Below are positions 1 through 36,889 of a stretch of 40,980 nucleotides of DNA, in pieces (within the stretch, counting starts at the first letter, position 1; every line of letters starts with the position of its first letter). Below the pieces are notes generated by a model. The model did no database searches, had not been told where the DNA came from, and worked only from the letters and a program-made list of their open reading frames with translations. Both the position numbers and the translations under genes were made by a program. Source of the DNA: a virus; the IMG/VR virus record IMGVR_UViG_3300025030_000226, positions 1 to 40,980 of that record. One strand, 5' to 3'.

Positions 1-1470
1 GAGCCCGGCTACGTCCTGTTGGATGAGTACGGCGACCAGACGGTTATCGATGAGGCGCTGATCTCGGATGAGGAGATTGTTGCCAAGCTCCAGACGGACG
101 AAGTGAGGATTATCGAGAAGAGGATCTCCAAGATCCGGCGAGCCATCTTTACCCATGAGAATTTCTTACTGGACGAGCCGGTAGATTTTCGGCACCGCCA
201 ACTTCCCTTTGTGGTGATCTGGTCCAAGAAGTATCACACTGGAGAGCCGGTAAGTCCCATCCGCTCCTTGCGAGACCCCCAGCGCGAAGTCAACCGGAGA
301 AAAGCCTCCTCACTTCTGGAACTGATCGCCAATCAGTGGATTCTGCGGGGGACGACCAACGAGAGCATCGACAAGCTTAAAAAAGATCTTGGTAATCCAT
401 TCGCCCTGATCAAAGAGCCGATCGGGACTCGTCTGGAGCGGGTTGAGCGGGCAGCCGCCTCCCAGCTCCACTTTAACCAGATGAAAGAGTCCCAGAACAT
501 GATCCGACAGCTATCCGGGGCCAATGACGAGATGCGCGGTCTTGGCGGACAGTACCAGTCCGGGTTGGCCATCGGCATGAAGCAACAGCAGGGAACGACG
601 GTAATCGCCCGCTTCTTCGACAATTTAAGAAGGGCTAGAAAACAACTAGGCTATCAGCTTCTCTCATTGGTTGAACAATACATGCCCCTCAAGAAGAAGA
701 TTCGGATTGCCGAGAAAGAGGGGATCACTGATAACTGGCGGTTTGAAAACAAATTGCATTTATTCGATCTAGTTGTTGATGAGCAGAATATGTTGGCGAC
801 AGACCGCCAAACCCAACTCTCAATGTTAACTCAGTTAATGCAGTCACTGCCGCCGGAGGCGCAAAGCCAGCTACTGCCTATAATCGCCGGATATTTCGAC
901 GTTAAAGATAAGGATAAATTAGTTCAAGCTGCTCAGCGCGTGGCAGATGTCATGATCGGTAATTTGGAACTCCAAAAGATGCAGGCTCAGATGGGAATTG
1001 CCCAGATGCAGCAGCAAATGCAGCAAGCTGAAGTTCAGAGTCAGATGGCCGCCCAGAGCCAAGAGCAGCAGGGCCAGGCTAATCAGCAAGCGCAGGTGCA
1101 ACAAGCTCAGCAGGCCGATCAGCAAGCTCAAGCTGCACAGGCCCAAGCTGACCAAAAACAGGCTGAGCAGCAACAGAAAGTTCAGTTGGCCCAGGCTCAA
1201 GCCCAGATGAATCAGGAACAGGCGGATCGACGACTGCAACTGGAGCAAATTAAAGCTGACCGGCAATTTCAACTTGAGGAGGCAAAGCTACAGCTCGAAA
1301 GGGAGAAGATGATTCAGGCCGGTAGAGAACGCGAGGCCGAGGGCGGGCCTAGAGAATCCGCAGAATTAACTGCTATTCGTCAATATTTGGCCGAAAATGG
1401 AAGATCTGATCTTGCCAGCCTCGATGCTTCTATTCTCATCCCGTTCTTACAACAAGCTCAAATTATCTAA
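1..1470 (+). CDS. Portal protein, P22-like (5' end outside window)
   Basis: The portal is the dodecameric ring at the capsid vertex through which DNA is packaged and ejected. The reading frame is open from base 1, so the N-terminal part lies outside the window and the visible 489 residues are the C-terminal portion. Residues about 183-215 (SGLAIGMKQQQG, then FDNLRRARKQLG) match the pattern I know from P22-type portals. Residues about 325-445 are extremely Gln/Ala-rich and helical, rich in short QAQ and AEQQQ runs, which fits the long C-terminal barrel of P22-type portals. The gene ends 12 bases before the next one, which has its own AGAGGG ribosome site. The head-gene context downstream (scaffold, major capsid protein) supports the call. 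The identification rests on family pattern memory; no alignment was run. Confidence 0.85.
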   Translation, partial: EPGYVLLDEYGDQTVIDEALISDEEIVAKLQTDEVRIIEKRISKIRRAIFTHENFLLDEPVDFRHRQLPFVVIWSKKYHTGEPVSPIRSLRDPQREVNRRKASSLLELIANQWILRGTTNESIDKLKKDLGNPFALIKEPIGTRLERVERAAASQLHFNQMKESQNMIRQLSGANDEMRGLGGQYQSGLAIGMKQQQGTTVIARFFDNLRRARKQLGYQLLSLVEQYMPLKKKIRIAEKEGITDNWRFENKLHLFDLVVDEQNMLATDRQTQLSMLTQLMQSLPPEAQSQLLPIIAGYFDVKDKDKLVQAAQRVADVMIGNLELQKMQAQMGIAQMQQQMQQAEVQSQMAAQSQEQQGQANQQAQVQQAQQADQQAQAAQAQADQKQAEQQQKVQLAQAQAQMNQEQADRRLQLEQIKADRQFQLEEAKLQLEREKMIQAGREREAEGGPRESAELTAIRQYLAENGRSDLASLDASILIPFLQQAQII

Positions 1471-1482
1471 AGAGGGTATTCA

Positions 1483-2121
1483 ATGTCAGAGAGTCTATTC
1501 GGCCCGGCCCTTGGAACTTTAGTCCAAAATGATTCTAGTAAGGATGATTCCAAAAAGGATTATCTAAATATAACTTTCATCGAGCCATTAGAGCCCAAGC
1601 CCCTCTTCTTGCCGGGTCATGCCGCCAGTTTTATCAATGATGCTATTCTCCTCAAGCGTCATATCTCAGGAAATTTTTCAATCTCGCACCGTGATGACTT
1701 TCTTATGCCCGGCGGGTATCAGTTTGATCTGTACAAATGTCTAGACAATTTGCGAAACGTCATGTACGAGGAGCTTCCGGCCCGCAAATTTAGTATTGAA
1801 TTTCCTATTGATAAGACGCCCTTCTGGTTTAAAAAGTACGGGAAGGTAGATTTAGTAACCACAGATGATGTAGGCAATGTTGAAACAAGCGAGGTCGATG
1901 GGTTTACAACGATCGAGTTTAGACAGTCGGATACTCCCAAATCTTACCCCCTGATCCCCCTCCTCTTTATCGATACCCTCTACCGGCTGAAGAACCTGGA
2001 ACCGGAAGAGGAAGCCTTTATTGCCGAGCGAATGTTTGAAGTCGCTCGAAAACGAAAACAGGGCTGGCAGATTAGTAACCAGGATTTTGGCAAGAGTCGC
2101 CAGACATTTAAAAATTTCTAA
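1483..2121 (+). CDS. Unknown protein between portal and scaffold genes
   Basis: This 212-residue protein starts at ATG after AGAGGG (spacing about 6). I do not recognise the family. It is acidic and soluble, with no signal peptide or membrane helix. The N-terminal 20 residues are rich in Ser/Asp/Lys and probably disordered. Residues about 30-150 are mixed alpha/beta with many Phe and Pro, and the C-terminus (about 170-205) looks helical and charged (EPEEEAFIAERMFEVARKRK). Its position directly behind the portal gene suggests a role in head assembly or packaging, which is inference only. The gene is followed by the TnpB insertion, so the operon is interrupted here. Confidence 0.75.
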   Translation: MSESLFGPALGTLVQNDSSKDDSKKDYLNITFIEPLEPKPLFLPGHAASFINDAILLKRHISGNFSISHRDDFLMPGGYQFDLYKCLDNLRNVMYEELPARKFSIEFPIDKTPFWFKKYGKVDLVTTDDVGNVETSEVDGFTTIEFRQSDTPKSYPLIPLLFIDTLYRLKNLEPEEEAFIAERMFEVARKRKQGWQISNQDFGKSRQTFKNF

Positions 2122-2127
2122 ACTACT

Positions 2128-2143
2128 TTTACAAACTTGTAAA
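2128..2143. repeat. Short inverted repeat (TTTACAA-AC-TTGTAAA)
   Basis: A 7-bp perfect inverted repeat with a 2-base centre lies just after the stop of the unknown gene at 1483-2121 and outside the TnpB element. It could be part of a weak transcription end or a binding site. No T-run follows it. Confidence 0.3.
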
Positions 2144-2168
2144 TACTCTACTTTACGATAAGAGTATT
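2142..2168. repeat. 8-bp inverted repeat spanning the TnpB element right boundary
   Basis: AATACTCT (2142-2149) and AGAGTATT (2161-2168) are perfect reverse complements separated by 11 bases. The right arm runs into the TTGACAC that I take as the element end. The repeat therefore covers most of the sequence that would be the TnpB guide. Its role is unknown. Confidence 0.6.
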
Positions 2169-2300
2169 GACACTCTTCCTCGGTTTCCCTAAGAAGATTC
2201 TTGGTTCAGTGAGTCAACTTACCCTAAACCACCACTGGTTTAGAACAGAGGTCGTTCTCTCCCCAAGCGTTACTTTCGGTGTGCCCCACCGTAGTTTTTA
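2167..2300 (-). ncRNA. Predicted omega-RNA (reRNA) of TnpB
   Basis: Known TnpB proteins use an RNA made from the 3' end of their own gene and the element right end, with the guide just beyond the boundary. Here two hairpins stand in the right place on the minus strand. One is TAAACCA-CCAC-TGGTTTA at 2225-2242, overlapping the tnpB stop codon, and the other is the right-end hairpin at 2174-2197. The guide would be read from base 2166 downward, about 20 bases (2147-2166). The 5' limit is not visible from sequence. Position and hairpins are seen; the RNA itself is inferred. Confidence 0.5.
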
Positions 2301-3399
2301 AATTAATTTGCTGTATAGCCCGATTCAAAATCACAATCGCTGAATTATGATCTCGATCCAGGAGACACCCGCAGGAACATTGATGAGTCCTTTGGGAAAG
2401 ACTCTTCTTAACAATGTTTCCACATTTGGAACATTCCTGAGTGGTATAAGCAGGGTTGACAAGAATCAGAGATTTACCAAATACTTTAGAGTAGTGGGTA
2501 AGTTTCTCCCTAAACAACCCCCAACCAGCGTCAGAAATACTCTTAGCCAAGCAATGATTCTTGACCATATTCTTAATATTCAAATTCTCAATAGCGACCA
2601 AATCGTGAGATTGGTATACGCACCTTGCCAGCTTAGTAACAAAGTCTTTACGTTGCCTCTGAGTCTTCAAATATCCTCTTTGAAGTTTCTGAATAGCTTT
2701 CTTTCTATTGGAAGATCCTTTCTTTTTCTTAGAAACTCTCTGATGAAGCTTCTTAATCTTCTTTTCAGAGACTTTGAAGAATTTCGGATTAGGTTCTTCC
2801 TTACCATTAGAGTCTGTATAGAAGGATTTCAAACCTACGTCCAGACCAATCATAGAGCCAGTAAAGGGAGCGCCCTCTGTCTTATCAATGTCGATAACGA
2901 ATTGGACATAGTAACTCCCCGCCCTCTTGACGATCCGAACGCGCTTAATTTTCTCTTTGGGGTACTGGTTGAGCGGGATCGTCCCGATCAACTTGAGTGT
3001 ACCAATCCCCTTTTTATCACTGAAAGTAATATACCTGTAATCAACCGATATTTTCCAACCATAAGTCTTATACTCGACCGAACGACTATTATGCTTAAAC
3101 CCTGGCTTGTTGTTCTTACTTATTTTTCTATCTTTACAATTAGCATAGAACTTAGAGATTGCTCTCCAAGCCCTCTCACATGCCGCTACTCTAGCTGTAG
3201 AATTGAGAGCGCTAACAAAGGAGAACTCGGCGGCCAAATTCTTAGACAGACGACTCAAGTCATACTTATCGGCACCCCAGTGGTCCATCCAATATTGGAT
3301 GGCTTTATTCCGAATGAATTGAGCAGTCTTGATAGCCTCATCAACCGCATGATATTGGGCTATTTTTCCACGAAGTTTAAACTCTACAGTTATAGTCAT
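2224..3399 (-). CDS. tnpB: TnpB RNA-guided nuclease
   Basis: This 391-residue protein has the normal TnpB length and all three RuvC motifs: GLDVG with D187, AIENL with E271, and LDRDHNSA with D350. The zinc ribbon is present between motifs II and III (C323, C326, C341, C343/C345). The C-terminal VGHTESNAWG is typical of this family. The nuclease therefore looks catalytically intact. TnpB proteins cut DNA next to a short TAM using the omega-RNA guide, which helps the element persist at its site. The gene is antisense to the surrounding head genes and has its own promoter, with TATAAT only 6 bases before the ATG, so the mRNA would be leaderless. No TnpA partner lies in the window. An antisense open frame of 412 codons (2347-3585) is a shadow. 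Confidence 0.93.
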   Translation of the reverse strand: MTITVEFKLRGKIAQYHAVDEAIKTAQFIRNKAIQYWMDHWGADKYDLSRLSKNLAAEFSFVSALNSTARVAACERAWRAISKFYANCKDRKISKNNKPGFKHNSRSVEYKTYGWKISVDYRYITFSDKKGIGTLKLIGTIPLNQYPKEKIKRVRIVKRAGSYYVQFVIDIDKTEGAPFTGSMIGLDVGLKSFYTDSNGKEEPNPKFFKVSEKKIKKLHQRVSKKKKGSSNRKKAIQKLQRGYLKTQRQRKDFVTKLARCVYQSHDLVAIENLNIKNMVKNHCLAKSISDAGWGLFREKLTHYSKVFGKSLILVNPAYTTQECSKCGNIVKKSLSQRTHQCSCGCLLDRDHNSAIVILNRAIQQINLKTTVGHTESNAWGENDLCSKPVVV

Positions 3400-3434
3400 A
3401 CCTATATTATACCATATTTTTTAAGTTTGAAAAG
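3400..3434 (-). promoter_or_regulatory. tnpB promoter, extended -10, leaderless arrangement
   Basis: On the minus strand TGG-TATAAT occupies 3414-3406, directly followed by six bases and the ATG at 3399. A weak -35 (TTTTCA, 3433-3428) lies 16 bases upstream. Transcription would begin at or next to the A of the ATG. No ribosome binding site fits between. Confidence 0.6.
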
Positions 3435-3637
3435 CCACACCGTTTCATTTTATTCAAAAGTTGCGGCACCCTCCTTTTATAGTGAAGGTAGAAAGTCTTT
3501 ATATATAGCGCGGGATACGCAAGCGACACAGCGTTCTCTGATTCTGTGCATCAGGTTACTTAGTACAGCTCACCTTCGGGAGTAATCGGAAGTATTCTCA
3601 TTTCCTTATTGAGTTAACAAGGAGAACCCCCCAGTCT

Positions 3638-4651
3638 ATGTCAATTGAAGTTGCGGAAAGTACTGACCAAGAGTCAACCTCAGAGGAGTATTCCTTTGAA
3701 GCTCTGGAAAGGTTGTTGATGTCCGATGACGAAACGGAAACCGAGGAAGCCCCGTCAGCTCCTCCTGAAGCACTTCCTGAACCCGCGCCGGAAGCAGCAG
3801 CTCCCGTCCAAGCGCCACTCCCTGTCGAGACGGTTGAAGATCCTCGCAAGGTCTCTTTAGTCGCCCTCCAGGCGGAGCGCCAGGAAAAGGCCAAGCTGCG
3901 TAACTCTTATAATCAGCTCCTTCAGGAGTTTGAAGAGTTCAAACGGCAGGCCCAGGTTCAGCCCCCTCCCGCAACCCCTACCGTTCCCGCAACCCCGCAG
4001 GTTCCGGACAAGGAGGAAGACCTTCTAGGCTGGGTCGAGTACGAATTTAAACGGCGCGATGCCGAGATCGAAGCCGCCAGACAAGAAGCGGCAAGGGTCG
4101 GTCAAGAAGCGTCTGCCCTGGCTAATCAGGCCAAGTTTGAAGTCATTCAAGCCGAGACGCGGCGGCAGATCGGCGAGTCCGAGTTCGATGCCGCGATCAA
4201 CGCCTTCAACGCCTACGACGCCGAGAACCCGGGCCGGATCAACATGTACGAGGTCTTCTCGACCGCTAACCCGGCCTACACCGCCTATGAACTAGGTAAG
4301 ACGATTCTCGACGCTCAGCGGGCCGCCGCTCCTCAACCTCCGATGGACTTGGAGGCGATGAAAGCCCAGCTCCGCCAGGAGTTGATTAATGAGTTGACGC
4401 CCTCCTTGAAACAGGAGGCGCTGCGCGAGGCGGCGACCGAGATCGCGGCCAAGCTGAAGGGGGTTCCGGCCCCGCAAGTGACCCCACAAGGTCGAAGTAT
4501 TGTCTCTATTCCCTCTGCCACGCAGGGGGTTGAAAAAGCCTACACGGCAGTAGATGTCCCGAAAGAGGTTCTTCAGAACACCAGTCGGGATGGCCTACGA
4601 AAGTATATTGAACAACTCTGGGAACTGGAACAGGTTGATCTAACCTCCTAG
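3638..4651 (+). CDS. Putative capsid scaffolding protein
   Basis: Scaffold proteins guide capsid shell assembly and then leave. This 337-residue protein sits directly before the major capsid gene, the usual place. The start is ATG behind AAGGAG. The first 70 residues are very acidic and Pro/Ala-rich. Residues about 75-105 and 125-185 are charged, heptad-like helices (for example QAERQEKAKLRNSYNQLLQE), and a Pro/Gln linker lies between. Residues about 240-280 form another helix rich in Glu, Ala and Lys. The C-terminus (KYIEQLWELEQVDLTS) is a short amphipathic helix that could bind the coat protein. No protease motif is seen. The function is inferred from position and composition. Confidence 0.72.
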   Translation: MSIEVAESTDQESTSEEYSFEALERLLMSDDETETEEAPSAPPEALPEPAPEAAAPVQAPLPVETVEDPRKVSLVALQAERQEKAKLRNSYNQLLQEFEEFKRQAQVQPPPATPTVPATPQVPDKEEDLLGWVEYEFKRRDAEIEAARQEAARVGQEASALANQAKFEVIQAETRRQIGESEFDAAINAFNAYDAENPGRINMYEVFSTANPAYTAYELGKTILDAQRAAAPQPPMDLEAMKAQLRQELINELTPSLKQEALREAATEIAAKLKGVPAPQVTPQGRSIVSIPSATQGVEKAYTAVDVPKEVLQNTSRDGLRKYIEQLWELEQVDLTS

Positions 4652-4684: not shown

Positions 4685-5809
4685 ATGGCTACTACGACAG
4701 TAGCGACGGGTGCGGCCCAAACGGTCAAGAAGTTTCTTGAGAAGTTGCTGGCCTCCGAAGTCGAAAAGAAGATGTCCTCGAAGCAATTCATGGGCAACAG
4801 TGCCGACTACGCCATCCAGAAGCTCGATGCCCTTGCCAAAGGTAAGGGGGACGCGGTTAACTTCCAAATCCGCTTCAAGCTCTCCGGTCAAGGCGTCACC
4901 GGCGACAATACCCTAGAAGGCAACGAAGAGACGATCACCGTTTCTAATGCCAGTGTCGTCATCGACCAGTTGCGGAATGCGGCTGGTAAACACAGCCGGA
5001 TGACGGCCAAACGGACTTATGTTGATTACACGACCGATACGATTGATCTCTTGTCGGTCTGGTTTGCAGAATGGTGCGACGAGGCGCTTTTCCAGTACCT
5101 CTCGGGTGTTCGGGGAACGAATGATACGTCAGGTAAGTTCGCCGCCAGTTGGAACGGCCACGCCGGGAATACCCTGGCGACCCCTGACGCCAATCACTTG
5201 CGCTACTGTACCGATACGGGCCTCTCCAGCACGATCGGCGACATGAACGACACCTTCGATGTTCTCCACCTCGATCTGGCTAATGTCCTGATCAAGGAAC
5301 TCCAGAACACCAGCGGCAACGCTGGGATGCGGAAGGTTCGCTTTGGTTCTCGCCCCAAGTTCATCCTGATGTTGAGCCCCCGGCAACGGACGCACATGAT
5401 GCAGACCAATGCCAGCAACCTCTTCGAGAAGATCAACATCGGTAAGATCCAGGGCGGCAACACCACGGACTACATCTTTGACGACGGGATCGACTACACC
5501 GATTTCGCCATCTATGAGAATGTCAACGTCCGCCGGATCGCTACCGCTGATTATACCGGCATTGACTCCGGCATGGCTTCGGTTCACCGTGCTCTGATCC
5601 TGGGGGCTCAAGCGGCGGTGGTCGCTTACGGCGACTCTAATGGTGGTTTCGACAATATCCAGGTGGATACCGAGACCTTCGATTACGGGAATATGACCGC
5701 TTACGCCGGTTCGGCCATTCTGGGGATGCGTAAAGTAACCTTTAACGATCCTGCGGGAACGGCCAGAGACCTTGGCGTCTACTGTCTTGATTCCCAGGCT
5801 GAAGTGTAG
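4685..5809 (+). CDS. Major capsid protein, N4-gp56/DUF4043 family
   Basis: This 374-residue protein would form the HK97-fold shell. Diagnostic pieces are LEGNEE at 77-82, IDQLRNA at 93-99, then a Tyr/Asp-rich helix (LLSVWFAEWCDEALFQYLSG) and the later KVRFGSRPKFILMLSPRQRT. This order is the one I know from the N4-gp56 capsid family, and the length fits. The gene lies 33 bases after the scaffold gene and 15 bases before the next one. GC content and codon use are richer in GCC/ACC/ATC than in the accessory genes on the right, as expected for a highly expressed gene. Confidence 0.9.
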   Translation: MATTTVATGAAQTVKKFLEKLLASEVEKKMSSKQFMGNSADYAIQKLDALAKGKGDAVNFQIRFKLSGQGVTGDNTLEGNEETITVSNASVVIDQLRNAAGKHSRMTAKRTYVDYTTDTIDLLSVWFAEWCDEALFQYLSGVRGTNDTSGKFAASWNGHAGNTLATPDANHLRYCTDTGLSSTIGDMNDTFDVLHLDLANVLIKELQNTSGNAGMRKVRFGSRPKFILMLSPRQRTHMMQTNASNLFEKINIGKIQGGNTTDYIFDDGIDYTDFAIYENVNVRRIATADYTGIDSGMASVHRALILGAQAAVVAYGDSNGGFDNIQVDTETFDYGNMTAYAGSAILGMRKVTFNDPAGTARDLGVYCLDSQAEV

Positions 5810-18858: not shown

Positions 18859-21800
18859 TTGCCAACTACCGATTATCTCAAAAATCTCACTTCCTCTACC
18901 CCTTTAGATCAACTCACACAACACTATAATGATGTTTTAACCAGTCCTGAATTTACTCAACTTTCTCCCCAGGAACAGATCAAGGTTCGACAAAATCTTG
19001 CAAAGAACCTTCATTATAATCCCGAATTTGAAAGCTTGGGTAATGATGTCTCTAGTCCAAGCTTTGCTCAGAAAGCTGGGCTAGTTAATTGGACGTTAGG
19101 AACGAGGCCCGAGCAACATCAGGTAGGGGAGGTTGCCACAATTCCAACGCCCTCCGCCAGCCTCCTTAACGCCCTTAAATCGGGCGTAAATCAATGGCTC
19201 CCGGCCCTTGGTTATCAGGCTCTTTACCAGCAGGCCCCCCTTCAGGCCGAAGAAACCGCCCCTGGACTTCCCACCTTCCTTGCCTCAACGGTTGGGATGG
19301 CTGATCCTACTATGATCCCAGCGGCCAAGCCTCTGGCCGCTCTAAGTAAGGCGGCACTAGGACGTGCTTTAGGAGCGGCGCTGCCGCCTGCTGCCGGTGA
19401 AGCAGCCAGACTGATTCCAAGACAGGGGTGGCGGGACGCGCTTCCTCTTTTTGGTCGCTCGGCATCAGAGAAGGTTGGTACTACAGCCGTAAGACCATTA
19501 GGAGAGCAGATTTACCGCTATGCAGACCCGGCATTGCAACTTGGGGCCATGACCGGCACGGTCGCCGCCCTGGCCGACCCGTTGCAACGTGAGATCGCCG
19601 GGGAAGAGCAAACAATTCCTGAGGCGCTGGGACATGCCGCTACGGCAGGGTTGGAAGGTTATGTTCCCGGTTTCTTAGGCGGAGGTGTTGGTGGCCTGGC
19701 TGGTCGGCTGGCAGCCAGGGGGCCCGGAGTCGAGGCCATCCCCGGCGTAGGTCAGACGCTCAAAGGGTTTACCGAAAGACATCCCCTTGCAACAGATATC
19801 GCTCAGACTGTCCCCGATCTTGCCGGAACGGTAGCAGGCTTTACTGCTGGGAAGGCGTTGACAGGGCAACCCGTTAGCCCAGAAGATGCGGCCCAAGAGT
19901 TTGCTTCTTTTGGCCTGTTAAAAGCGATGCCGCATGTCCGCTACCCGTTCAGGCGTCCGCCGGTCCCGAAAAAAATTCTTGAAGAGTCCCCGGCATTTCT
20001 TTGGAACCGAATAGATAAAAAAACAGGAGCGCCTGTCTCAACTGAGTATACAATTACAGGCTACGATCCAGGCACTAAAAAATTAGATATTATCAAGGGC
20101 GACGGCAGCCAAACGACACCAGAGAAGATGGATATTGCTGTATTCAATCACTGGTATCGCAAAGGGAGTATTAAATTTACTGAGGCTATACCAGAATCTT
20201 CCTCAGAAATTCCGCCCATTGATGCCGCCGCCCCTCCCCCTGAATCTAAAGCTAATCTAACACCAGAACAACCGGCGATCCAGGAGCGGGCCGAGGCCGA
20301 AGCCAATGCTGTTCTTGATACTGAGCTACTTAACGCCAAAAGAGCAAGACTTACTCAACTCACTCAGAATCGAACCGACTTTCTACACTCCCTGATACAA
20401 ACTGGAAAAGGAAAGAGCAGCACGGGCGGGGACGTATTTACTTTAGATTCTACACGCATCCCAGAGACAGACCGATTAGGTTTTGGTCATTTTGCTTTCG
20501 GAGAATTTGTTGATCGCCCATTACAGAGGGCCGCTGATAAGCTGAAGACGGCCAAAACACTGGAACAGGTCAACAATGAACAATCCACCAGAGGACTGGT
20601 TAACAAAGGAGTTCGAGAATCTATTCCTGGCTCTGGCGGAAAAAAGGGGGGCAACCAAGAACTCCTTGATCATTTGTCCGATCAGTGGGCAGGGCTACCG
20701 GAAGAGAAAAAACAGTGGTTCCGAAAGCTTGGAGAACAGGCAGATGTTGAAGGAAAACCCCTTCTTCCTCAATACCGCAAGATTAACTTGCCTGGTGAGC
20801 AAGATAAAGCTGCTGAATCAATCCGTTTGGTTGACCAAACTCCCCCCGCTGAAAAACCCGTTGTCCCTCCAGAGATTAGTCAACAGCCAGAGCCCGCGCC
20901 ATTTGTAAGCCCTGAACAAAGACTAAATTCCCTTATCAAACAATACCATCAGGGCTTGGTCGCTTTTCGGAAAAATCCCAACAGAGAAACCTATTCAGCC
21001 CTGGCTGAAGTAAATCGTAGTCTGGGACGGATCAAGCGCGATGAAGCGGGCCTTGGCCCGAAAGAACAAAAAAGCCGGGAAATTTTCGAGAGGTCAATGG
21101 AGACCTCTTTCCGACGGCTGCCCAAAGAAGCCCAAAGAGAGATTTTAACAACAACTTCGGGAGAACAAGGGAAAGACCCTCTCCACCCTGCCCTAGCCAA
21201 ACTACAGTACATGACGGCTGAAGATAGAATTAAGACTTACCTTCAACAAACCGGAAAGAAGAAAGAAGAACTACCTCTAACCAAGGACGGTAAAAGAGTT
21301 GACACGAATGCGCTTAAGAATGAGCTGATGGACTTAAAGCGCCAAGAACTATTAGAAAAATACAACCTCATAGAAAAGGAAGATCAGAAACCTACGGAAG
21401 TGGTACCGGCCAGCAAGAAACAGCTCCCCTCCATGCCTGCCGAGAAAAACAAAAAAGCCGCCGCTCCCCCAACTGAGAAAAAACCAGAAATTAAAAAAGA
21501 GCCTCGTCCTCCGGAAGAGAATCCCTTCGTTGCCAAATTCGACAGCCCAGAAGTTGACGTAGAGAAACTCGCGCTGAAGTTATCTGCCAACGCCTACAAG
21601 AAGATTGTTAAGCTCGTCGATAAGCCGGGCGATCTGACAGAAGCGGAGAAAGCAGAGGGCGGGGCCCTTATGGTAGAGCTTAATCAGATTGCCTCCGGGT
21701 ATACTAAGGTAACATCACCTCAAGCAGCCAATCAGAAGATCCGCAGCAAATCTTTAGTTACGACAGCCATCCGTGCATTAAAACTCTGGCAGGATAAGTT

Positions 21801-24800
21801 GAACAGCCAGAAAAAGAAACCAGATCCCGCCCCCAAGCCTGAAGAAAAGAAGCCTCCCGCCCCAAAAGTCAGCAAAAAACCTGAAAAACCAACTAAACCT
21901 CCTGTCACCAAAGCTCAAGAGAGGCCATCTGAGGTATCGTCCGATCCATACGCAGCCTTATCAGAAGAGGCCCTTAAAAAGAAAGCCGCACAAGGCGATC
22001 CAATTGCTAAACTCTGGTTAGAAAAGCTCCAAGAAGTTAAGGGGCAGGCCCTTTCTCAAACTGGTAAAGGTTCAGAACGTGCTCTTCCTGAGCAAGAGTT
22101 CCAGGTTTCAGACAGAAGCTCCTTCCGGGAGGCCATAAAACAGGCTTTTGGACTTAAGGAAGAGTCCAAAAAACTCCCCTTCTGGAAATCCTGGCTGTCC
22201 AAACTAGGAATAAAGTTTAAGCCGGGCGGAGAGTTGGATGCGGTCATGAAGATCGCCGATCTAGCAGCAGATGCCTGGGCGGCTGTTCATGGAAAGACAC
22301 GGGATGACTGGTATCGGGAGAGTCTCCGCTCCTTCAGGCGCGGAGGGTTGCCCAAAGAAGAAGCCTTGAAGCAGCTTTTCCACGAGTGGAGCGGAAAGCC
22401 GGAAAAGCTAGACGACGCCATTGAAGTAACCAAAATGAAGATCGACGGACTGACCCAAAGAAATAAAGGTCTCGCCGCCGACCTCAAAATGCACGGCTCC
22501 GTTAAAGAACTACTCAAAAAATACACAAAATTTGAGAGACTAACTGAGGAGGAACAAAATCGTCTGCTAGATTTTGAAACCTCCTATCCTCTAACCACCG
22601 AGAAACACAACGAGGCACATAGGCTGTGGAAAAAACTCTTTACAGACCCTGAGATGGATCTTCAAGTCTCGGAGATGCTTGCCAAGTACAAACGTAACGA
22701 AACTGTCCTTGAGGGGTTAGATAAACATCTGACCGATCTCTATATTCTGAAAAAATCTGGCCTTCTTTACCAAAAAGAGGGGGCAGTCAAGGGTCAGGTT
22801 GAATTTCTCCAGGACGGGCGGGCCATTATTACGGCCTTCCAATCTGCTGATGTCTCCACCCTCGTTCACGAGTTGGCTCACGTCTACCGCCGCCAATTAT
22901 CCGGCAAAGAACTAAAGATTGCAGAGCAGTGGGCAGGAGTCAAGGATGGGGTCTGGACTGTAAAAGCAGAAGAAAAATTTGCTAGAGGATTTGAACGCTA
23001 CCTGGCGGACGGCCAAGCTCCGCTCCCAACTCTGAAAAAAGTATTTGAAAAATTCAAAGTCTGGCTGACTGAAATTTATAAGGGACTAGTTGGCTCAGAG
23101 ATTGACATTGAGCTAAATGATAATATCCGTCAGGTCTTTGATAGCCTTTTGATTGGTCAAGTCAAAGCTCAGTATGTTCGGAGTCTGCGGCGACAGGCTA
23201 ATATTGAGAAGATTATTGGGGGCAGAAGCGACAACTATACCGCCCAGGATTTGAATGACTACGGGCGCTCCCTGGCCTTCCGGGCGCTGATCAATGCTAA
23301 GAATAAGCTCCCTAATAACGATCCTCTTAAGGTCGAGATGACCGACCTGGCCAATCAAATTAAAAATGCTGAGACATATAAGGGGCCAACAATTCTTCGG
23401 CAGGAGTCTAAGGCCAAGGAAACAGAAGACGCCAAGCTCAAAAGCTATCAAAAATACGTAGAAGACCAAACGGCAAAGGTAAAGGACGGAGAACAGCAGA
23501 TCCAGGAACTGTCCGACAAGCTCAAAGCTATAAAAGAAAAGAAACCGGCCTCAGCAGAAGACGTTAAGACACAGAAGAAGTTCAATAAGGAACTGAGTGA
23601 ACTCAAAAGCCAGCAAAAACGAGATCGGGACGACCTACAAAGGGCGATCGAAAGCCAAGAATATTACACCATGTTAACCGAGGCCCATCAGGAGATTCCC
23701 CTTAATCGTCCCGAAGGATGGCTCTTCAAGAACCCAACCAACCTGATGGTGCAGACTGTAATCCCTTATCTCAAACAGAACAAGTTCGACAAGTCTCTGA
23801 AATTACTAGAAGGAACTAGAAAATATCTAGGAAAAGAACTAATTGGTAACGAAGCAACTCGTGTCATTACTGATCGGGTAGACAATTTCTACGATAAGGT
23901 GATCGGAGAAGCGCGGGCCAAGATCCGTCATGATCTCAATCTGGCGAACGGTGATTTCTCTACTATGAGGGTCGCGCTGGATGCGGCGCTGGAGCTAAAA
24001 AACAAACTTCCTCAAACAGTCAATGAGCTAGTCCATAAAGCACTAGAAGACAAGACTCCCTGGGAAGCCTTAAAGGAGGAGAAGGCTATTGCCGATCTCT
24101 CTGTCGCAAAACGAAAGATCGTTGAAAATACTCTGGGGGTTTTACAGAGGTATCTGAAAACCTACGGAAACAGGATCGCACTCGCTCCTGATCGTTTACC
24201 GACTCGAATTATCAATGGATTGAAACGGCTGATCTACAATAACATGGCCAGGCTCCCCATGTTCCTTAAGGCGGTACAGAAACTGATGCGGGAGTCCAAA
24301 TTCAATATCGATAAGATCAACACCCTCGCCAGTCAAATCGAGCAGTATGATCAACTGGATCAGATCAAGGCCGGTCAGATGCTGACAGAAATATATGCAG
24401 GAACCGGAAAACCAGAATTAAACAAGCTTGTCAACTCCTTGAAAACCCAGCTTCATCCGGTTCTTGTTGAACTTTCTAGAATCAAACATTCTGTTTTCAA
24501 AAACGCCGCCGGGGAAATACTTGATCCTTCTGAAGTCTCCTTCAAGGAGTTGATTGGTGAGGCTTTAGTCCACGTTAAAGATGACCCTCGTATTCAAGAT
24601 ATGATTACTCAAATTGATAAAAGCTTCTCCTCCTTCAAAGAAGAGGGACTAAAGTTAACTGTCTCTAAAAGTATCTGGGGGAAGATGAGGCAAAATTGGG
24701 AGGTGGTCTCCTATGACGAGGCGACGGATTTCTACACCCTGAAAAATGACAGGGGCGAGGATATGAACGTCCGGGGGATGGACTATTACAATTGGGTTCG

Positions 24801-26349
24801 CCCCTCTGGAAAACCTTGGAAAGCCAAATCAGTAGGGGGAGAGATGGAGATCCAACGTCTTCTCGATCCCAGTGAATTAGCTGAGCTGGAAAAGTACCGG
24901 AACCAGACCATCACAATTATGGCTCTCGCGCGTGAAACCGCCGTTGCGGTGCAAAAGGGCAAGGTCTATGGAATGATCAAAGCTCTCAACACCAGCCCGC
25001 GCAAGACTGAATCTATGAAGATGAAAATCCCGGACGAGCCCCGATTTGGGGATCTCCGGGGCCTGTGGACGGATTGGGACACCTACCGCTATCTGAATAT
25101 CTTCGACGCCGGGAGCGTCAAGATGCTGCTCGACCCCGCCAACAAAGCAACTGATTTCTGGAAGTCTCTTCATACCATTCACAGTACCGGAACGGGAATG
25201 ACCAACATCATCTCCAACACGGTTCTCATGATGGCGAATGGCGTAAATCCTTATAAGTTAAAAAGAGCGGGCGAGATCTACTACAAAGCCATAAAAGATA
25301 AAACTTCTTTAGCAGAGGCGGCGGGAGATCCGAATATCTCTCACACCGACGCCGTAAATTGGCAAATAGCGCACGGTCACAAGAATAAATTATCCGGACA
25401 AGAACTAGAAAACTGGAAAAAGATGTGGGATAAACTTGTTCACGTCGCCCAGCAGGGGAGGGTCTTGGAGACCCCCATGCAATTTTGGAGAACCCTCACA
25501 CAAGTTTCTTCCGATTTCTATCAAGGCTCCGATGTTATCTTCCGTCTGGCGCATTACCTGGACATGAAAGAAAAGCTGGAGAAGGCCAACCCCGCCTGGA
25601 AAACCAACCCCAAAATTGCTGAGGAGATCGCTTTTACAGCCGCAGAAGAGGCGAGGAAGTCCTACGTTGATTATCAGGATCAGAACTCCACTCTGAGTTA
25701 TGTCTTCAAGAACATAAAAGTTATTCCCTTCTGGGGGTTCTTCGCGGGCATCGTTCCGCAAATGATGCGGCTTCTGAAAGAGCGGCCCATCCCGGCCATG
25801 CTGTTGTTGGGCGGATTCTCTTTTGCTCAGGCCATGACTGACCCAGACAATCAGGAACAACTTGATCCATTCTTCAAAGAGGCATCCCAGGGAAGAATCT
25901 TGATTGGAAACCAGAAATTGGGCGGGCTTGAGATGCTTTTCCCCAGGAAACTATTAAAAATTCCCCTGTTAAAGGGAAAGCAGGGGGAGCCCCTCTACGC
26001 CGATATTGGCAAGTATTCGACCTTTGGCACTCTATTAACCCCCAACAAGTATACCGCCATTCCGCTATTTCCCAAGTGGTTGGAAGCTTATGGCCCGTAT
26101 AGTCAGGTTTTGCAGCTTTACTTCAACTCCAAATACGGGATCGGTTCGGCCAAGATCGTGGATAAAGAGAAGGACACAACACTAGAACAGGCCGGGAAAT
26201 ATTTTAACTGGACTTGGAGCCAGTGGGCTCCTCCTTACTGGGTCTTGTATAGCAGGGGGGATAAGCGAGACGTTCTGACCAGATTCCAAGAGGCCATAAA
26301 TAATATTTTTGGGGTTACCATTCATACTCCAGGAGAAAACATAAGATGA
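18859..26349 (+). CDS. Giant internal virion protein with zincin domain
   Basis: This 2496-residue protein starts at TTG (chosen because AGGTGA precedes it by a few bases) and ends overlapping the next ATG (ATGA). The N-terminal part (about 60-360) has hydrophobic Gly/Ala-rich segments. Residues about 820-1060 are Lys/Glu/Pro-rich linkers. A zincin-type motif HELAH lies at 1337-1341, with candidate third ligands E1372 or E1379 in EEKFARGFERYLADG; this block resembles the large polyvalent protein-associated peptidase-like domain. Residues about 1530-1610 are coiled coil. The C-terminal 500 residues include HSTGTGMTNIISNTVLMM and membrane-like stretches near 2290 and 2315. Large proteins of this kind are ejected with phage DNA. 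RNA polymerase motifs were not seen. Confidence 0.7.
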   Translation: MPTTDYLKNLTSSTPLDQLTQHYNDVLTSPEFTQLSPQEQIKVRQNLAKNLHYNPEFESLGNDVSSPSFAQKAGLVNWTLGTRPEQHQVGEVATIPTPSASLLNALKSGVNQWLPALGYQALYQQAPLQAEETAPGLPTFLASTVGMADPTMIPAAKPLAALSKAALGRALGAALPPAAGEAARLIPRQGWRDALPLFGRSASEKVGTTAVRPLGEQIYRYADPALQLGAMTGTVAALADPLQREIAGEEQTIPEALGHAATAGLEGYVPGFLGGGVGGLAGRLAARGPGVEAIPGVGQTLKGFTERHPLATDIAQTVPDLAGTVAGFTAGKALTGQPVSPEDAAQEFASFGLLKAMPHVRYPFRRPPVPKKILEESPAFLWNRIDKKTGAPVSTEYTITGYDPGTKKLDIIKGDGSQTTPEKMDIAVFNHWYRKGSIKFTEAIPESSSEIPPIDAAAPPPESKANLTPEQPAIQERAEAEANAVLDTELLNAKRARLTQLTQNRTDFLHSLIQTGKGKSSTGGDVFTLDSTRIPETDRLGFGHFAFGEFVDRPLQRAADKLKTAKTLEQVNNEQSTRGLVNKGVRESIPGSGGKKGGNQELLDHLSDQWAGLPEEKKQWFRKLGEQADVEGKPLLPQYRKINLPGEQDKAAESIRLVDQTPPAEKPVVPPEISQQPEPAPFVSPEQRLNSLIKQYHQGLVAFRKNPNRETYSALAEVNRSLGRIKRDEAGLGPKEQKSREIFERSMETSFRRLPKEAQREILTTTSGEQGKDPLHPALAKLQYMTAEDRIKTYLQQTGKKKEELPLTKDGKRVDTNALKNELMDLKRQELLEKYNLIEKEDQKPTEVVPASKKQLPSMPAEKNKKAAAPPTEKKPEIKKEPRPPEENPFVAKFDSPEVDVEKLALKLSANAYKKIVKLVDKPGDLTEAEKAEGGALMVELNQIASGYTKVTSPQAANQKIRSKSLVTTAIRALKLWQDKLNSQKKKPDPAPKPEEKKPPAPKVSKKPEKPTKPPVTKAQERPSEVSSDPYAALSEEALKKKAAQGDPIAKLWLEKLQEVKGQALSQTGKGSERALPEQEFQVSDRSSFREAIKQAFGLKEESKKLPFWKSWLSKLGIKFKPGGELDAVMKIADLAADAWAAVHGKTRDDWYRESLRSFRRGGLPKEEALKQLFHEWSGKPEKLDDAIEVTKMKIDGLTQRNKGLAADLKMHGSVKELLKKYTKFERLTEEEQNRLLDFETSYPLTTEKHNEAHRLWKKLFTDPEMDLQVSEMLAKYKRNETVLEGLDKHLTDLYILKKSGLLYQKEGAVKGQVEFLQDGRAIITAFQSADVSTLVHELAHVYRRQLSGKELKIAEQWAGVKDGVWTVKAEEKFARGFERYLADGQAPLPTLKKVFEKFKVWLTEIYKGLVGSEIDIELNDNIRQVFDSLLIGQVKAQYVRSLRRQANIEKIIGGRSDNYTAQDLNDYGRSLAFRALINAKNKLPNNDPLKVEMTDLANQIKNAETYKGPTILRQESKAKETEDAKLKSYQKYVEDQTAKVKDGEQQIQELSDKLKAIKEKKPASAEDVKTQKKFNKELSELKSQQKRDRDDLQRAIESQEYYTMLTEAHQEIPLNRPEGWLFKNPTNLMVQTVIPYLKQNKFDKSLKLLEGTRKYLGKELIGNEATRVITDRVDNFYDKVIGEARAKIRHDLNLANGDFSTMRVALDAALELKNKLPQTVNELVHKALEDKTPWEALKEEKAIADLSVAKRKIVENTLGVLQRYLKTYGNRIALAPDRLPTRIINGLKRLIYNNMARLPMFLKAVQKLMRESKFNIDKINTLASQIEQYDQLDQIKAGQMLTEIYAGTGKPELNKLVNSLKTQLHPVLVELSRIKHSVFKNAAGEILDPSEVSFKELIGEALVHVKDDPRIQDMITQIDKSFSSFKEEGLKLTVSKSIWGKMRQNWEVVSYDEATDFYTLKNDRGEDMNVRGMDYYNWVRPSGKPWKAKSVGGEMEIQRLLDPSELAELEKYRNQTITIMALARETAVAVQKGKVYGMIKALNTSPRKTESMKMKIPDEPRFGDLRGLWTDWDTYRYLNIFDAGSVKMLLDPANKATDFWKSLHTIHSTGTGMTNIISNTVLMMANGVNPYKLKRAGEIYYKAIKDKTSLAEAAGDPNISHTDAVNWQIAHGHKNKLSGQELENWKKMWDKLVHVAQQGRVLETPMQFWRTLTQVSSDFYQGSDVIFRLAHYLDMKEKLEKANPAWKTNPKIAEEIAFTAAEEARKSYVDYQDQNSTLSYVFKNIKVIPFWGFFAGIVPQMMRLLKERPIPAMLLLGGFSFAQAMTDPDNQEQLDPFFKEASQGRILIGNQKLGGLEMLFPRKLLKIPLLKGKQGEPLYADIGKYSTFGTLLTPNKYTAIPLFPKWLEAYGPYSQVLQLYFNSKYGIGSAKIVDKEKDTTLEQAGKYFNWTWSQWAPPYWVLYSRGDKRDVLTRFQEAINNIFGVTIHTPGENIR

Positions 26350-33890: not shown

Positions 33891-34484
33891 ATGGACAAGC
33901 ACTATACTTCTCGGTATATATTGAAATCAGATGAACATAAAAATACCTTTATCACAAAGCTCCCTGAAACATGGTGGTCCAGACCTTACGAATACGCCTG
34001 GGCCGCTAATTTTATGGGGAAAGATCTTACTGTCTTAGACGCTGCCTGTGGGATCGAACACCCCTTCAAATACTATCTGGCCGAAAACTGCCAATTCGTT
34101 GACGCCACAGACCACGATCCCAAAATTAAGGACGTAGCTCATAACTATTCCAATCTCACCCTCTACCACACCGACCTTACCGACACCCCAAGTCAAGAAG
34201 GCACCTATGATCGGGTCTTCTGCATCTCCGTCCTGGAGCACCTTAATCCCATCGAACGAATTGACACCTTGATGGAGTTTTATCGAGTCTTGAAACCAAG
34301 CGGCTTGGCCGTCATTACTTGCGATATTCCCTTAGTTACCCCAGTTAAATTAATCACACACGCTTTACAGATTGGCTTCTCCCTGCCCGGTCCCGCCTAC
34401 CCTCAAGCCCCCGATCCTTCTTACACCATTTATTCAGAGGAATATGGACTATATTGTTACAGACTTCTCCTGCAAAAATCTTAA
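33891..34484 (+). CDS. SAM-dependent methyltransferase (class I)
   Basis: This 197-residue protein has the class I fold. Motif I is VLDAACGIEHP (about 47-57), followed by an acidic residue pair in VDATDHDP. The motif near 100-110 is YDRVFCISVLEHL and the post-motif is FYRVLKPSGLAVITCDIP. This is the Methyltransf_11/FkbM-like type that modifies small molecules or sugars and not DNA; no DNA methylase motif (DPPY or PC) is present. The 3' end overlaps the next gene by 31 bases, so the two are coupled. A sugar or glycan O-methylation role is inferred from the glycosyltransferase neighbour. Confidence 0.82.
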   Translation: MDKHYTSRYILKSDEHKNTFITKLPETWWSRPYEYAWAANFMGKDLTVLDAACGIEHPFKYYLAENCQFVDATDHDPKIKDVAHNYSNLTLYHTDLTDTPSQEGTYDRVFCISVLEHLNPIERIDTLMEFYRVLKPSGLAVITCDIPLVTPVKLITHALQIGFSLPGPAYPQAPDPSYTIYSEEYGLYCYRLLLQKS

Positions 34485-36889
34485 TTGGCAGCCCGATTCG
34501 GCAACATCCTCGGATATTAACTGAATTTATTAAGGGACTTCAGAACCTGGATACGACCGGGTTAGAGATCTCTTTCTGTTTTGTCGATGACTGTGAAAAT
34601 ACAGAACTGACGGATACATTAGAAAAGCTACCCCTCGATCCCGTTCACATTATTACCCCTGCTAATGGTCTAAAAGAGACGTATATTTGTGATGAGCAGA
34701 CCCACCACTGGGCTGGAAAAGACTCCCTAGTTTGGCGAGTCGCCAGTCATAAGAATATACTGATTCAGGAGGCGCTGAATGGAACCTTTGACTACTTGTT
34801 TCTCGTTGATTCTGACATCATACTTGATCCCCGGACTCTACATCACCTCGTCCAACAGCAGGAAGATCCTGGAAATGAGGGGGTCAGAATTTATTCTTCG
34901 ACATTCTGGACGAAGTGGGAACCTCACCTGTCAGAACTACCCCAAGTCTGGGAATCGGGACAATACAACCTCTCGCCGGAGTTTATCGAAAAACTAAAAA
35001 TTCCCGGAATCTATGAAGTAGGAGGGCTGGGCGCATGTACACTTATATCGAGATCAGTTCTGGAGGCCGGGGTGACCTTCAATCAAGTCTCCAATTTGGA
35101 TCTCTGGGGGGAAGACCGCCACTTTTGCCATTCTGCCCGACAAATGGGGTTCAAATTATATGCCGATACTACACTCCAACAGAAGCATATTTACCGATTG
35201 AGCGACCTACCCCAGAAGATCCTCCTCAGTATCCTCGTCCGAAATGAAGCTGATCGTTATCTAAAGGAAGTGTTAGAACATGCCAAACAGTACGTCGATG
35301 AGATCATGGTCCTGGATGACGGCTCAACCGATAGGACCGTTGAGCTATGCAGGAGCACCTTGGCAGGATATCCCCGCACTATTCATCTTTCTGCACAATC
35401 CTCTTTTTCAAGAGAGAGCGAACTTCGGAAACGACAGTGGAACTTGGCTCAACAAAGTGATGCTGATTGGATTCTGGTCCTCGATGCCGACGAGATTTTG
35501 GAGGGCCGGATCATCACCGAGATCCGGGAACTGGTAAAAGAGACCAACTATGATGCCGTTGCCTTCCGCCTCTACGATATGTGGGACAAAATCCACTACC
35601 GGGAAGACCCCTACTGGGAAGCCCACAAACATTTCCGGCCCTTTTTAGTCCGGGCCAGCGCCGTCAAAGACCCGGCATTTGCCGATCAGAACCTTCACTG
35701 CGGCAGGCTTCCTCTGGCGGTTAATTCTCTCCCTACGCGACTCAGTTCAATCCGGCTCAAGCATTACGGGTGGGCCAAGGTTGCAGATCGGGACGAGAAA
35801 TACTGGCGCTACAAAACCTTAGACCCGGACGCTAAGTATGGTATACAAGCCCAATATGACAGCATTAAGGATAAAAATCCAAAATTAAAACGATTTGATC
35901 CCTTGCCGGGGCTTTCTCTCTGCATGATTGTCAAGAACGAGGAGAAATATTTACAGGACTGTCTGGACTCCGCAAGGGGCCTGGTAAATGAAATTATTAT
36001 TGTGGATACGGGCTCAACAGATTCTACAGTTAAAATTGCAAAACGAAACGGGGCTAAAGTCTTTAACTTCGCTTGGATCAACGATTTCTCTGCCGCTAGA
36101 AACTACGCCCTCGAACAAGCCCACCACCAGTGGATCTTAGTCCTAGACGCCGATGAAACCCTTGATCGGGGCAGTCACACAATCATTAAAGAGGCGATAA
36201 AATCAGAACGAAAATTTATCTATAGCGCCACCGTAGTCAATGAACTAGTTAATAAAACTACGGAGCATCTCACAGCCAGGCTCTTTCCTAACAGTGATCT
36301 GATCCGCTATAAAAATGTCATACATGAACAGCCAGTAGACCAACTTAACGAAGTAACGGACCTCCCCCTGACGGCCTTTGTAATTTACCATAAGGGCTAT
36401 CATGCCGATATGGTCATTTCTAGACAGAAGAACAAACGGAATCTAGATCTTCTCCAAAAACGAATCTTCGATAATCTGCTAGATCCATTACCTAGAATGT
36501 CCGTAGCTCAAGAACTAGAGGGCGTTGGCAATATCTTTGAGGCGGTCGATCAGCTTCGCATCGGCCTCCATCTCTGCCGACTCATGAACTCTCCACCCGC
36601 CCTTCTGGAACAGATTGCTTCAGATTTGGTCAACTTGGGAGCGCGCCATGAGAATCATAATCTTGCTTATCATGAGGCAAAGATGTTTCTTCTGACCTAT
36701 CCTAATCCAACTCACCCAGGATTTTGGATCGGCTATGCTGAATCTCAATTAAAAATGAACGATGGTGGAGCAAAAGACAGTTGGCAGAAAGCCGTTAAAT
36801 ACGGAAATACTCCGATCGTCTACGGAAGTCTTGAAGAGATTAAAACCAGGGCCGAAAAACTAAAGGCTCAACTTCTTCAACCTGTTTAA
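34454..36889 (+). CDS. Triple-domain GT-A glycosyltransferase
   Basis: This 811-residue protein has a TTG start (AGAGGA 12 bases upstream). There are three glycosyltransferase units. Residues about 1-230 have FVDDC near 43 and the DxD-like VDSDIIL near 117-122. Residues about 255-470 have LSILVRNEADRYL, LDDGSTDRT and LVLDADEIL. Residues about 485-640 have LSLCMIVKNEEKYL, VDTGSTDST and LVLDADETL. The last two are typical GT2 domains with the DxD metal site. Residues about 650-811 are helical and TPR-like, which could hold an acceptor protein. It would transfer sugars, possibly onto phage adhesins or a host surface polymer. The fusion of three domains is unusual in a phage. Confidence 0.85.
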   Translation: MLQTSPAKILIGSPIRQHPRILTEFIKGLQNLDTTGLEISFCFVDDCENTELTDTLEKLPLDPVHIITPANGLKETYICDEQTHHWAGKDSLVWRVASHKNILIQEALNGTFDYLFLVDSDIILDPRTLHHLVQQQEDPGNEGVRIYSSTFWTKWEPHLSELPQVWESGQYNLSPEFIEKLKIPGIYEVGGLGACTLISRSVLEAGVTFNQVSNLDLWGEDRHFCHSARQMGFKLYADTTLQQKHIYRLSDLPQKILLSILVRNEADRYLKEVLEHAKQYVDEIMVLDDGSTDRTVELCRSTLAGYPRTIHLSAQSSFSRESELRKRQWNLAQQSDADWILVLDADEILEGRIITEIRELVKETNYDAVAFRLYDMWDKIHYREDPYWEAHKHFRPFLVRASAVKDPAFADQNLHCGRLPLAVNSLPTRLSSIRLKHYGWAKVADRDEKYWRYKTLDPDAKYGIQAQYDSIKDKNPKLKRFDPLPGLSLCMIVKNEEKYLQDCLDSARGLVNEIIIVDTGSTDSTVKIAKRNGAKVFNFAWINDFSAARNYALEQAHHQWILVLDADETLDRGSHTIIKEAIKSERKFIYSATVVNELVNKTTEHLTARLFPNSDLIRYKNVIHEQPVDQLNEVTDLPLTAFVIYHKGYHADMVISRQKNKRNLDLLQKRIFDNLLDPLPRMSVAQELEGVGNIFEAVDQLRIGLHLCRLMNSPPALLEQIASDLVNLGARHENHNLAYHEAKMFLLTYPNPTHPGFWIGYAESQLKMNDGGAKDSWQKAVKYGNTPIVYGSLEEIKTRAEKLKAQLLQPV

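What the first reader, a model, noticed from the sequence alone, without database searches (positions are those of the whole stretch)
2167..3480. Intact lone TnpB inside the phage head operon
The element sits between the portal and scaffold genes on the opposite strand, has all RuvC residues, no TnpA and a well-formed right end. TnpB nucleases re-cut sites that lack the element, so here it could act like a homing nuclease that spreads through related phages by cutting their head operon. The guide would be the sequence at 2147-2166. Family function is established; the phage homing role is inference.
Basis: partly seen in the sequence, partly recalled or inferred. Interest (0 to 1): 0.72.

Follow-up and report, generated by a model that had tools for sequence, protein, structure and literature searches.

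The report
RNA-guided TnpB nuclease in phage
A probable cyanobacterial virus carries, between two of its head genes, an intact mobile-element nuclease with its guide RNA aimed at the uninterrupted version of the same site; such passengers are already known in cyanobacterial viruses, and whether this one actively spreads between viruses is untested.

Summary
An intact 391-aa TnpB lies at 2224-3399 (-) in a phage contig, between a 212-aa hypothetical gene and the putative scaffold gene, with all RuvC and zinc-finger residues and no TnpA. An omegaRNA model built from 52 cyanobacterial and viral relatives, without the window, hits 2276-2167 (-) at E=1.1e-17 and stops exactly at 2167. The left end is weaker: no TTAY motif lies beside it, and the family left-end profile does not match. 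Its relatives are cyanobacterial. TnpBs are already known in cyanophages, so this is a new member of a known kind. The homing role is not shown here: no empty-site relative exists in the collections, because the phage is a singleton there; the three near-identical contigs are all occupied. Three insertions of the same element family in cultured Nodularia phages do have uninterrupted sites in relatives, each TTAT plus the exact guide; one is an omegaRNA-only mini-element. That makes cleavage of empty alleles plausible. But there the same element sits at different sites in different phages, which is transposition, not same-site homing.

The parts
2224..3399 (-). tnpB, 391 aa, intact RuvC (D187, E271, D350) and zinc finger
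2167..2276 (-). omegaRNA scaffold (right end), overlapping the tnpB 3' end; terminal hairpin 2175-2196; ends in conserved GTGTCAA at 2167
   Evidence: E 1.1e-17; covariation in family
2147..2166 (-). guide: TACTCTTATCGTAAAGTAGA (phage flank read out as the omegaRNA 3' extension)
   Evidence: boundary; unique in window; exact 18-mer only in the three occupied contigs of IMG/VR
3400..3478 (-). left end: imperfect hairpin GCCGCA/TGTGGC and leader; not matched by the family left-end profile
3406..3433 (-). sigma70-like promoter TTTTCA-16-TATAAT just upstream of the tnpB ATG (consensus match only)
3479..3482 (-). TAM position: reads CTAT (family TTAY); alternative TCAC at 3482-3485
   Evidence: inference
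1483..2121 (+). 212-aa hypothetical gene on the guide side of the element
3638..4651 (+). putative scaffold gene (by position between portal and capsid; no family match)
1..1470 (+). portal gene, 3' part (P22-type)
4685..5809 (+). major capsid protein (Phage_capsid_3)

Best explanation
This is a lone-TnpB element of the IS200/IS605 superfamily, of the clade found in cyanobacteria and their phages, inserted in the intergenic gap between two phage head genes. TnpB and its omegaRNA come from one minus-strand transcript that runs from the element's own promoter through the right end into the phage flank, so the guide is the flank itself (2147-2166). The complex should cut any DNA that carries the uninterrupted site next to a TTAY motif: a sister genome that has lost the element, or a co-infecting related phage without it. 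Repair from the occupied copy would then restore or copy the element. Shown here: intact nuclease, conserved omegaRNA, exact guide boundary, no self-target in the contig, no TnpA. Inferred: expression, cleavage, and above all copying between phages.
For: Intact TnpB with aligned D-E-D triad. 81 of 88 positions that are at least 97% conserved in 76 cyanobacterial TnpBs are kept, against 55% agreement at other positions, on a long branch of 0.97 changes per site, so the protein has been under constraint. OmegaRNA hit E 1.1e-17 with the window left out of the model; the family structure is 94.8% paired with 371 two-sided changes against 97.5 in shuffles. The window's terminal hairpin has a different sequence but keeps its pairing (CUUCUU/AGGAAG). 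The guide occurs once in the window. In cultured Nodularia phages three insertions of this family have uninterrupted alleles in relatives, each TTAT + exact guide, with the right end cutting after GTGTCAA. TnpB elements act as gene drives on plasmids (PMC11870625).
Against: No empty-site relative of this phage exists in the collections, so target and TAM are not observed. The nucleotides beside the left end are CTAT (or TCAC), not TTAY, and the family left-end profile does not match the window, though it matches only 41 of 88 family members. Apart from the near-identical contigs, none of the loci found by capsid protein holds a TnpB beside its capsid gene. In the Nodularia phages the same element sits at different sites, which shows transposition, not same-site homing. 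No RNA data.
Confidence: 0.6

Rival explanations
1. A passive passenger: a lone TnpB element dropped into a harmless gap by a TnpA acting in trans (from the host or another element) and inherited with the phage. TnpB serves only the element's own retention after excision; nothing is driven between phages.
For: The same lone element lies at two different sites in two related Nodularia phages, one genome (kac65v151) also holding a full TnpA+TnpB copy. Phage TnpBs fall in several places among cyanobacterial ones, at least 6 label changes forced by well-supported branches. The insertion lies between genes.
Against: Does not by itself explain how TnpB and omegaRNA stay intact over a long branch, though retention in cis would.
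Confidence: 0.33
2. A domesticated TnpB used by the phage itself, for example to exclude co-infecting relatives or to regulate a gene through its guide.
For: Phages have exapted TnpB-derived TldR proteins as RNA-guided regulators (PMC13418256, abstract); the left end here is not recognisable as a family end.
Against: RuvC is intact, unlike TldR; the guide equals the adjacent flank, as in an unmodified element; the right end is canonical.
Confidence: 0.12
3. A decaying remnant without activity.
For: Left end not recognisable by the family profile and no TTAY at the left boundary.
Against: No stop or frameshift, constraint at conserved positions, omegaRNA structure kept with compensated stems.
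Confidence: 0.07

Closest known systems
Lone and paired TnpB elements of cyanophages (Nodularia phages 2AV2/kac65/kac68, Anabaena phage A-1(L), Microcystis phages LMM01 and MaMV, Pseudanabaena phage PA-SR01)
   Same: Same TnpB family (47-52% identical), same omegaRNA model; several without TnpA beside them
   Different: Those lie elsewhere in their genomes and several have near relatives; here the site is in the head operon of a phage with no close relatives
Cyanobacterial IS200/IS605 (IS1341-type) TnpB elements
   Same: 49-58% identical in the scan; right end AAGAATC-hairpin-GAGTGTCAA; all 80 best genome loci cyanobacterial
   Different: Typical left end CRAAAA..GGGTCTAAAGCCCCG after TTAY is not found in the window
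ISDra2 TnpB (PDB 8BF8, 8H1J)
   Same: Catalytic residues align, E 1.3e-30; omegaRNA at the tnpB 3' end
   Different: Different omegaRNA sequence; ISDra2 carries TnpA and uses another TAM (own knowledge)
TnpB gene drive of IS200/605 on plasmids (PMC11870625)
   Same: Mechanism proposed here: cutting copies that lack the element
   Different: Shown on multicopy plasmids, not phages

Membership tests
TnpB (OMEGA nuclease) | OrfB_IS605 and zinc-ribbon/RuvC domains with D-E-D triad | tested here: met
TnpB (OMEGA nuclease) | omegaRNA encoded at the tnpB 3' end, ending at the element boundary | tested here: met
   E 1.1e-17, ends at 2167; window not in the model
TnpB (OMEGA nuclease) | RNA-guided cleavage of TAM + guide target | not testable with these tools
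   needs biochemistry
IS200/IS605 element of the cyanobacterial clade | right end with AAGAATC, hairpin and cleavage site TCAA | tested here: met
IS200/IS605 element of the cyanobacterial clade | left end hairpin next to a TTAY target motif | tested here: inconclusive
   profile misses the window but also 47 of 88 upstream regions searched; motif beside the end is CTAT or TCAC
IS200/IS605 element, autonomous | Y1 transposase TnpA in the element | tested here: not met
   lone TnpB
TldR (RuvC-dead TnpB regulator) | loss of catalytic residues | tested here: not met
   D187, E271, D350 present
homing endonuclease-like element of phages | uninterrupted target site in related phages | tested here: inconclusive
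   no related phage available for this site; met for three insertions of the same family in Nodularia phages
homing endonuclease-like element of phages | biased transmission in mixed infection | not testable with these tools
   experiment needed

The most novel reading that the evidence does not exclude
The element is an RNA-guided homing element of phages: in mixed infections it cuts the head operon of relatives that lack it and is copied in by recombination, so that it and the linked head genes sweep through a phage population; omegaRNA-only mini-elements such as the one in Nodularia phage kac65v151 would ride on the same nuclease.
Probability: 0.27. Interest if true: 0.68.

Novelty: new member of a known kind. 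Interest (0 to 1): 0.4.

Why it matters
Lone TnpBs recur in cyanophages, yet what they do for themselves or for the phage is unknown. The work gives a precise guide, RNA boundary and family TAM (TTAT in three insertions compared with empty alleles), and names cultured phages (kac65v151 against kac68v161 and 2AV2) in which the homing idea can be tested directly.

Tried and rejected
Rfam found nothing at gathering scores, and weak hits (RAGATH-18, E 1.3, over the omegaRNA region) are chance level. Search for the guide in 2.9 million viral contigs: only the occupied copies. Capsid relatives in cyanobacterial genomes: one of 386, 30% identical, no help for the empty site. Unconstrained folding of omegaRNA plus guide is no better than shuffles (z -0.33), so the structural claim rests on the family model and covariation, not on folding energy. 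The left-end profile was tried and does not match the window. RuvC-dead TldR was rejected on residues. The TTAY count is conditioned on a pattern that asks for TTAY; the independent evidence for TTAT is the three empty-site comparisons. No structure prediction was run, since the sequence match to solved TnpBs already places the catalytic residues.

Full report
Observation. The minus-strand ORF 2224-3399 encodes a 391-aa TnpB without stops. Pfam gives OrfB_IS605 and Cas12f1-like_TNB. The best natural solved relative is ISDra2 TnpB (8BF8, E 1.3e-30), whose D191/E278/D361 align with D187/E271/D350 here (that these ISDra2 residues are the catalytic triad is own knowledge). No Y1 transposase is found in the 41-kb record while the controls ring. 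The record is a virus record with portal, capsid and other virion genes. The element lies between a 212-aa hypothetical gene (1483-2121) and the putative scaffold gene (3638-4651). Its GC is about 0.40, against 0.51-0.60 in most of the neighbouring structural genes.

Right end and guide. All 80 best genome hits of the TnpB are cyanobacterial. Their downstream regions share AAGAATC, a variable hairpin and GAGTGTCAA, after which the sequences diverge. A covariance model from 52 such regions, window excluded, has one match in the window, 2276-2167 (-), 71.8 bits, E 1.1e-17, ending exactly at 2167. On 69 aligned matches the model's 25 pairs are 94.8% paired, with 371 two-sided changes against 97.5 in shuffles (that alignment is fitted to the model). 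The window's terminal hairpin differs in sequence yet pairs fully (CUUCUU/AGGAAG around GG-GAAA-CC), and a second stem is present as UAAACC/GGUUUA.

Left end. Family left ends read TTAY|CRAAAA..GGGTCTAAAGCCCCG (the pattern asked for TTAY). The window reads CTTCACTAT|AAAAGGAGGGTGCCGC on the minus strand. Compared with the Nodularia element (TTAT|AAGGAAGGCAGG) the likeliest boundary is 3478, with CTAT in the TAM place; TCAC with a boundary at 3481 is the alternative. A left-end profile misses the window, but it also misses about half of the family (41 of 88 upstream regions match). A sigma70-like promoter precedes the ATG (consensus only).

Constraint and origin. Of 88 positions at least 97% conserved in 76 cyanobacterial TnpBs the window keeps 81, against 55% agreement elsewhere. 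In the tree the window is a long branch (0.97) near the base; phage TnpBs fall among cyanobacterial ones in several places (at least 6 changes forced), so phages have taken them up repeatedly (quick method, long branches placed unsurely). A cyanobacterial host for this phage is inference from the TnpB alone.

Empty-site test for this phage. Its 212-aa gene and its scaffold gene have relatives only in three contigs from two metagenomes, 99.9-100% identical and all occupied. The guide 18-mer occurs in IMG/VR only in those. Flanking DNA has no match in 50,697 phage records. The nearest other capsid protein is 36% identical; of the loci found by capsid protein, only the near-identical contig holds a TnpB nearby. 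The test is therefore not failed but impossible with these collections.

Natural experiment in the same family. Cultured Nodularia phages 2AV2, kac65v151 and kac68v161 carry related TnpBs. One lone-TnpB element, 99.4% identical over 1572 bp, is at site A in kac65v151 and at site B in kac68v161. Site A is uninterrupted in kac68v161 and 2AV2 as (G/T)TTAT|AATCACTGCTAAATTGCTG (GCTTAT and GTTTAT), while the occupied copy reads GCTTAT|AAGGAAGG...GAGTGTCAA|AATCACTGCTAAATTGCTG. Site B is uninterrupted in 2AV2 and kac65v151 with TTAT directly before the guide ATCAATTTAAGTG; the occupied copy also lacks the 75 bp to the left of that guide. A third insertion, 437 bp in kac65v151, has a left end and a full omegaRNA (101 bits) but no TnpB; its empty alleles in the other two phages read GAATTAT|TATAAGGTGTTTGATTATGCC, again TTAT + exact guide. 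So related phages with uninterrupted, TAM-bearing sites exist for this family. Two cautions: a guide identical to the empty allele is what any clean insertion gives, and one element at two sites shows transposition, not same-site homing.

Mechanism. TnpB matures its omegaRNA from its own transcript (PMC10278001, title and abstract) and cuts targets under RNA guidance (PMC8612924, title and abstract). TnpB acts as a gene drive on plasmids by removing copies without the element (PMC11870625). Transferring this to a replicating pool of phage genomes is the most likely reading, but expression, cutting and copying are inferred. Whether the effect reaches beyond retention in cis to spread between phages is open; I put same-site spread between phages at about 0.27.

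Known or new. TnpBs are on record in cyanophages CL 131, PA-SR01 and Mic1 and in many phage records. The case is a new member of a known kind. The head-operon position is of special interest only if homing is shown.

Noticed in passing
L186:21557-21993 (Nodularia phage kac65v151, 119557-119993): A 437-bp insertion with a left end and a full omegaRNA (101 bits) but no TnpB ORF; empty alleles in kac68v161 and 2AV2 show TTAT + exact guide. An omegaRNA-only mini-element that a TnpB elsewhere in the same genome could serve in trans.
   Followed up: partly
L186:16164-17730 and L189:7862-9432: The same lone-TnpB element (99.4% identical) at two different sites in two related Nodularia phages; the copy at site B goes with a 75-bp loss between two TTAT motifs.
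   Followed up: yes
window 2175-2188 (-) and 3736-3749 (+): 14 identical bases shared by the 3' part of the omegaRNA hairpin and the putative scaffold gene (about 0.01 expected by shuffles); probably chance, same sense so no pairing.
   Followed up: partly
window 2138-2172: The guide side of the insertion is an inverted repeat (TGTAAATACTCT/AGAGTATTGACA, 11-nt loop), so the element sits at the edge of a stem-loop downstream of the 212-aa gene and the guide's first bases could pair with the sequence just after it.
   Followed up: partly
window 2347-3585 (+): A 412-aa open frame antisense to tnpB; probably a by-product of tnpB codon use.
   Followed up: no
window 34454-36889: An 811-aa protein with several glycosyltransferase domains in a phage structural region; a 2496-aa ORF lies at 18859-26349.
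   Followed up: no
TnpB tree: Several phage TnpBs (window, LMM01, PA-SR01, MaMV-CH02, L090) sit on long end branches (0.6-1.0) compared with a median of 0.1, as if they evolve faster in phages or come from unsampled hosts.
   Followed up: no
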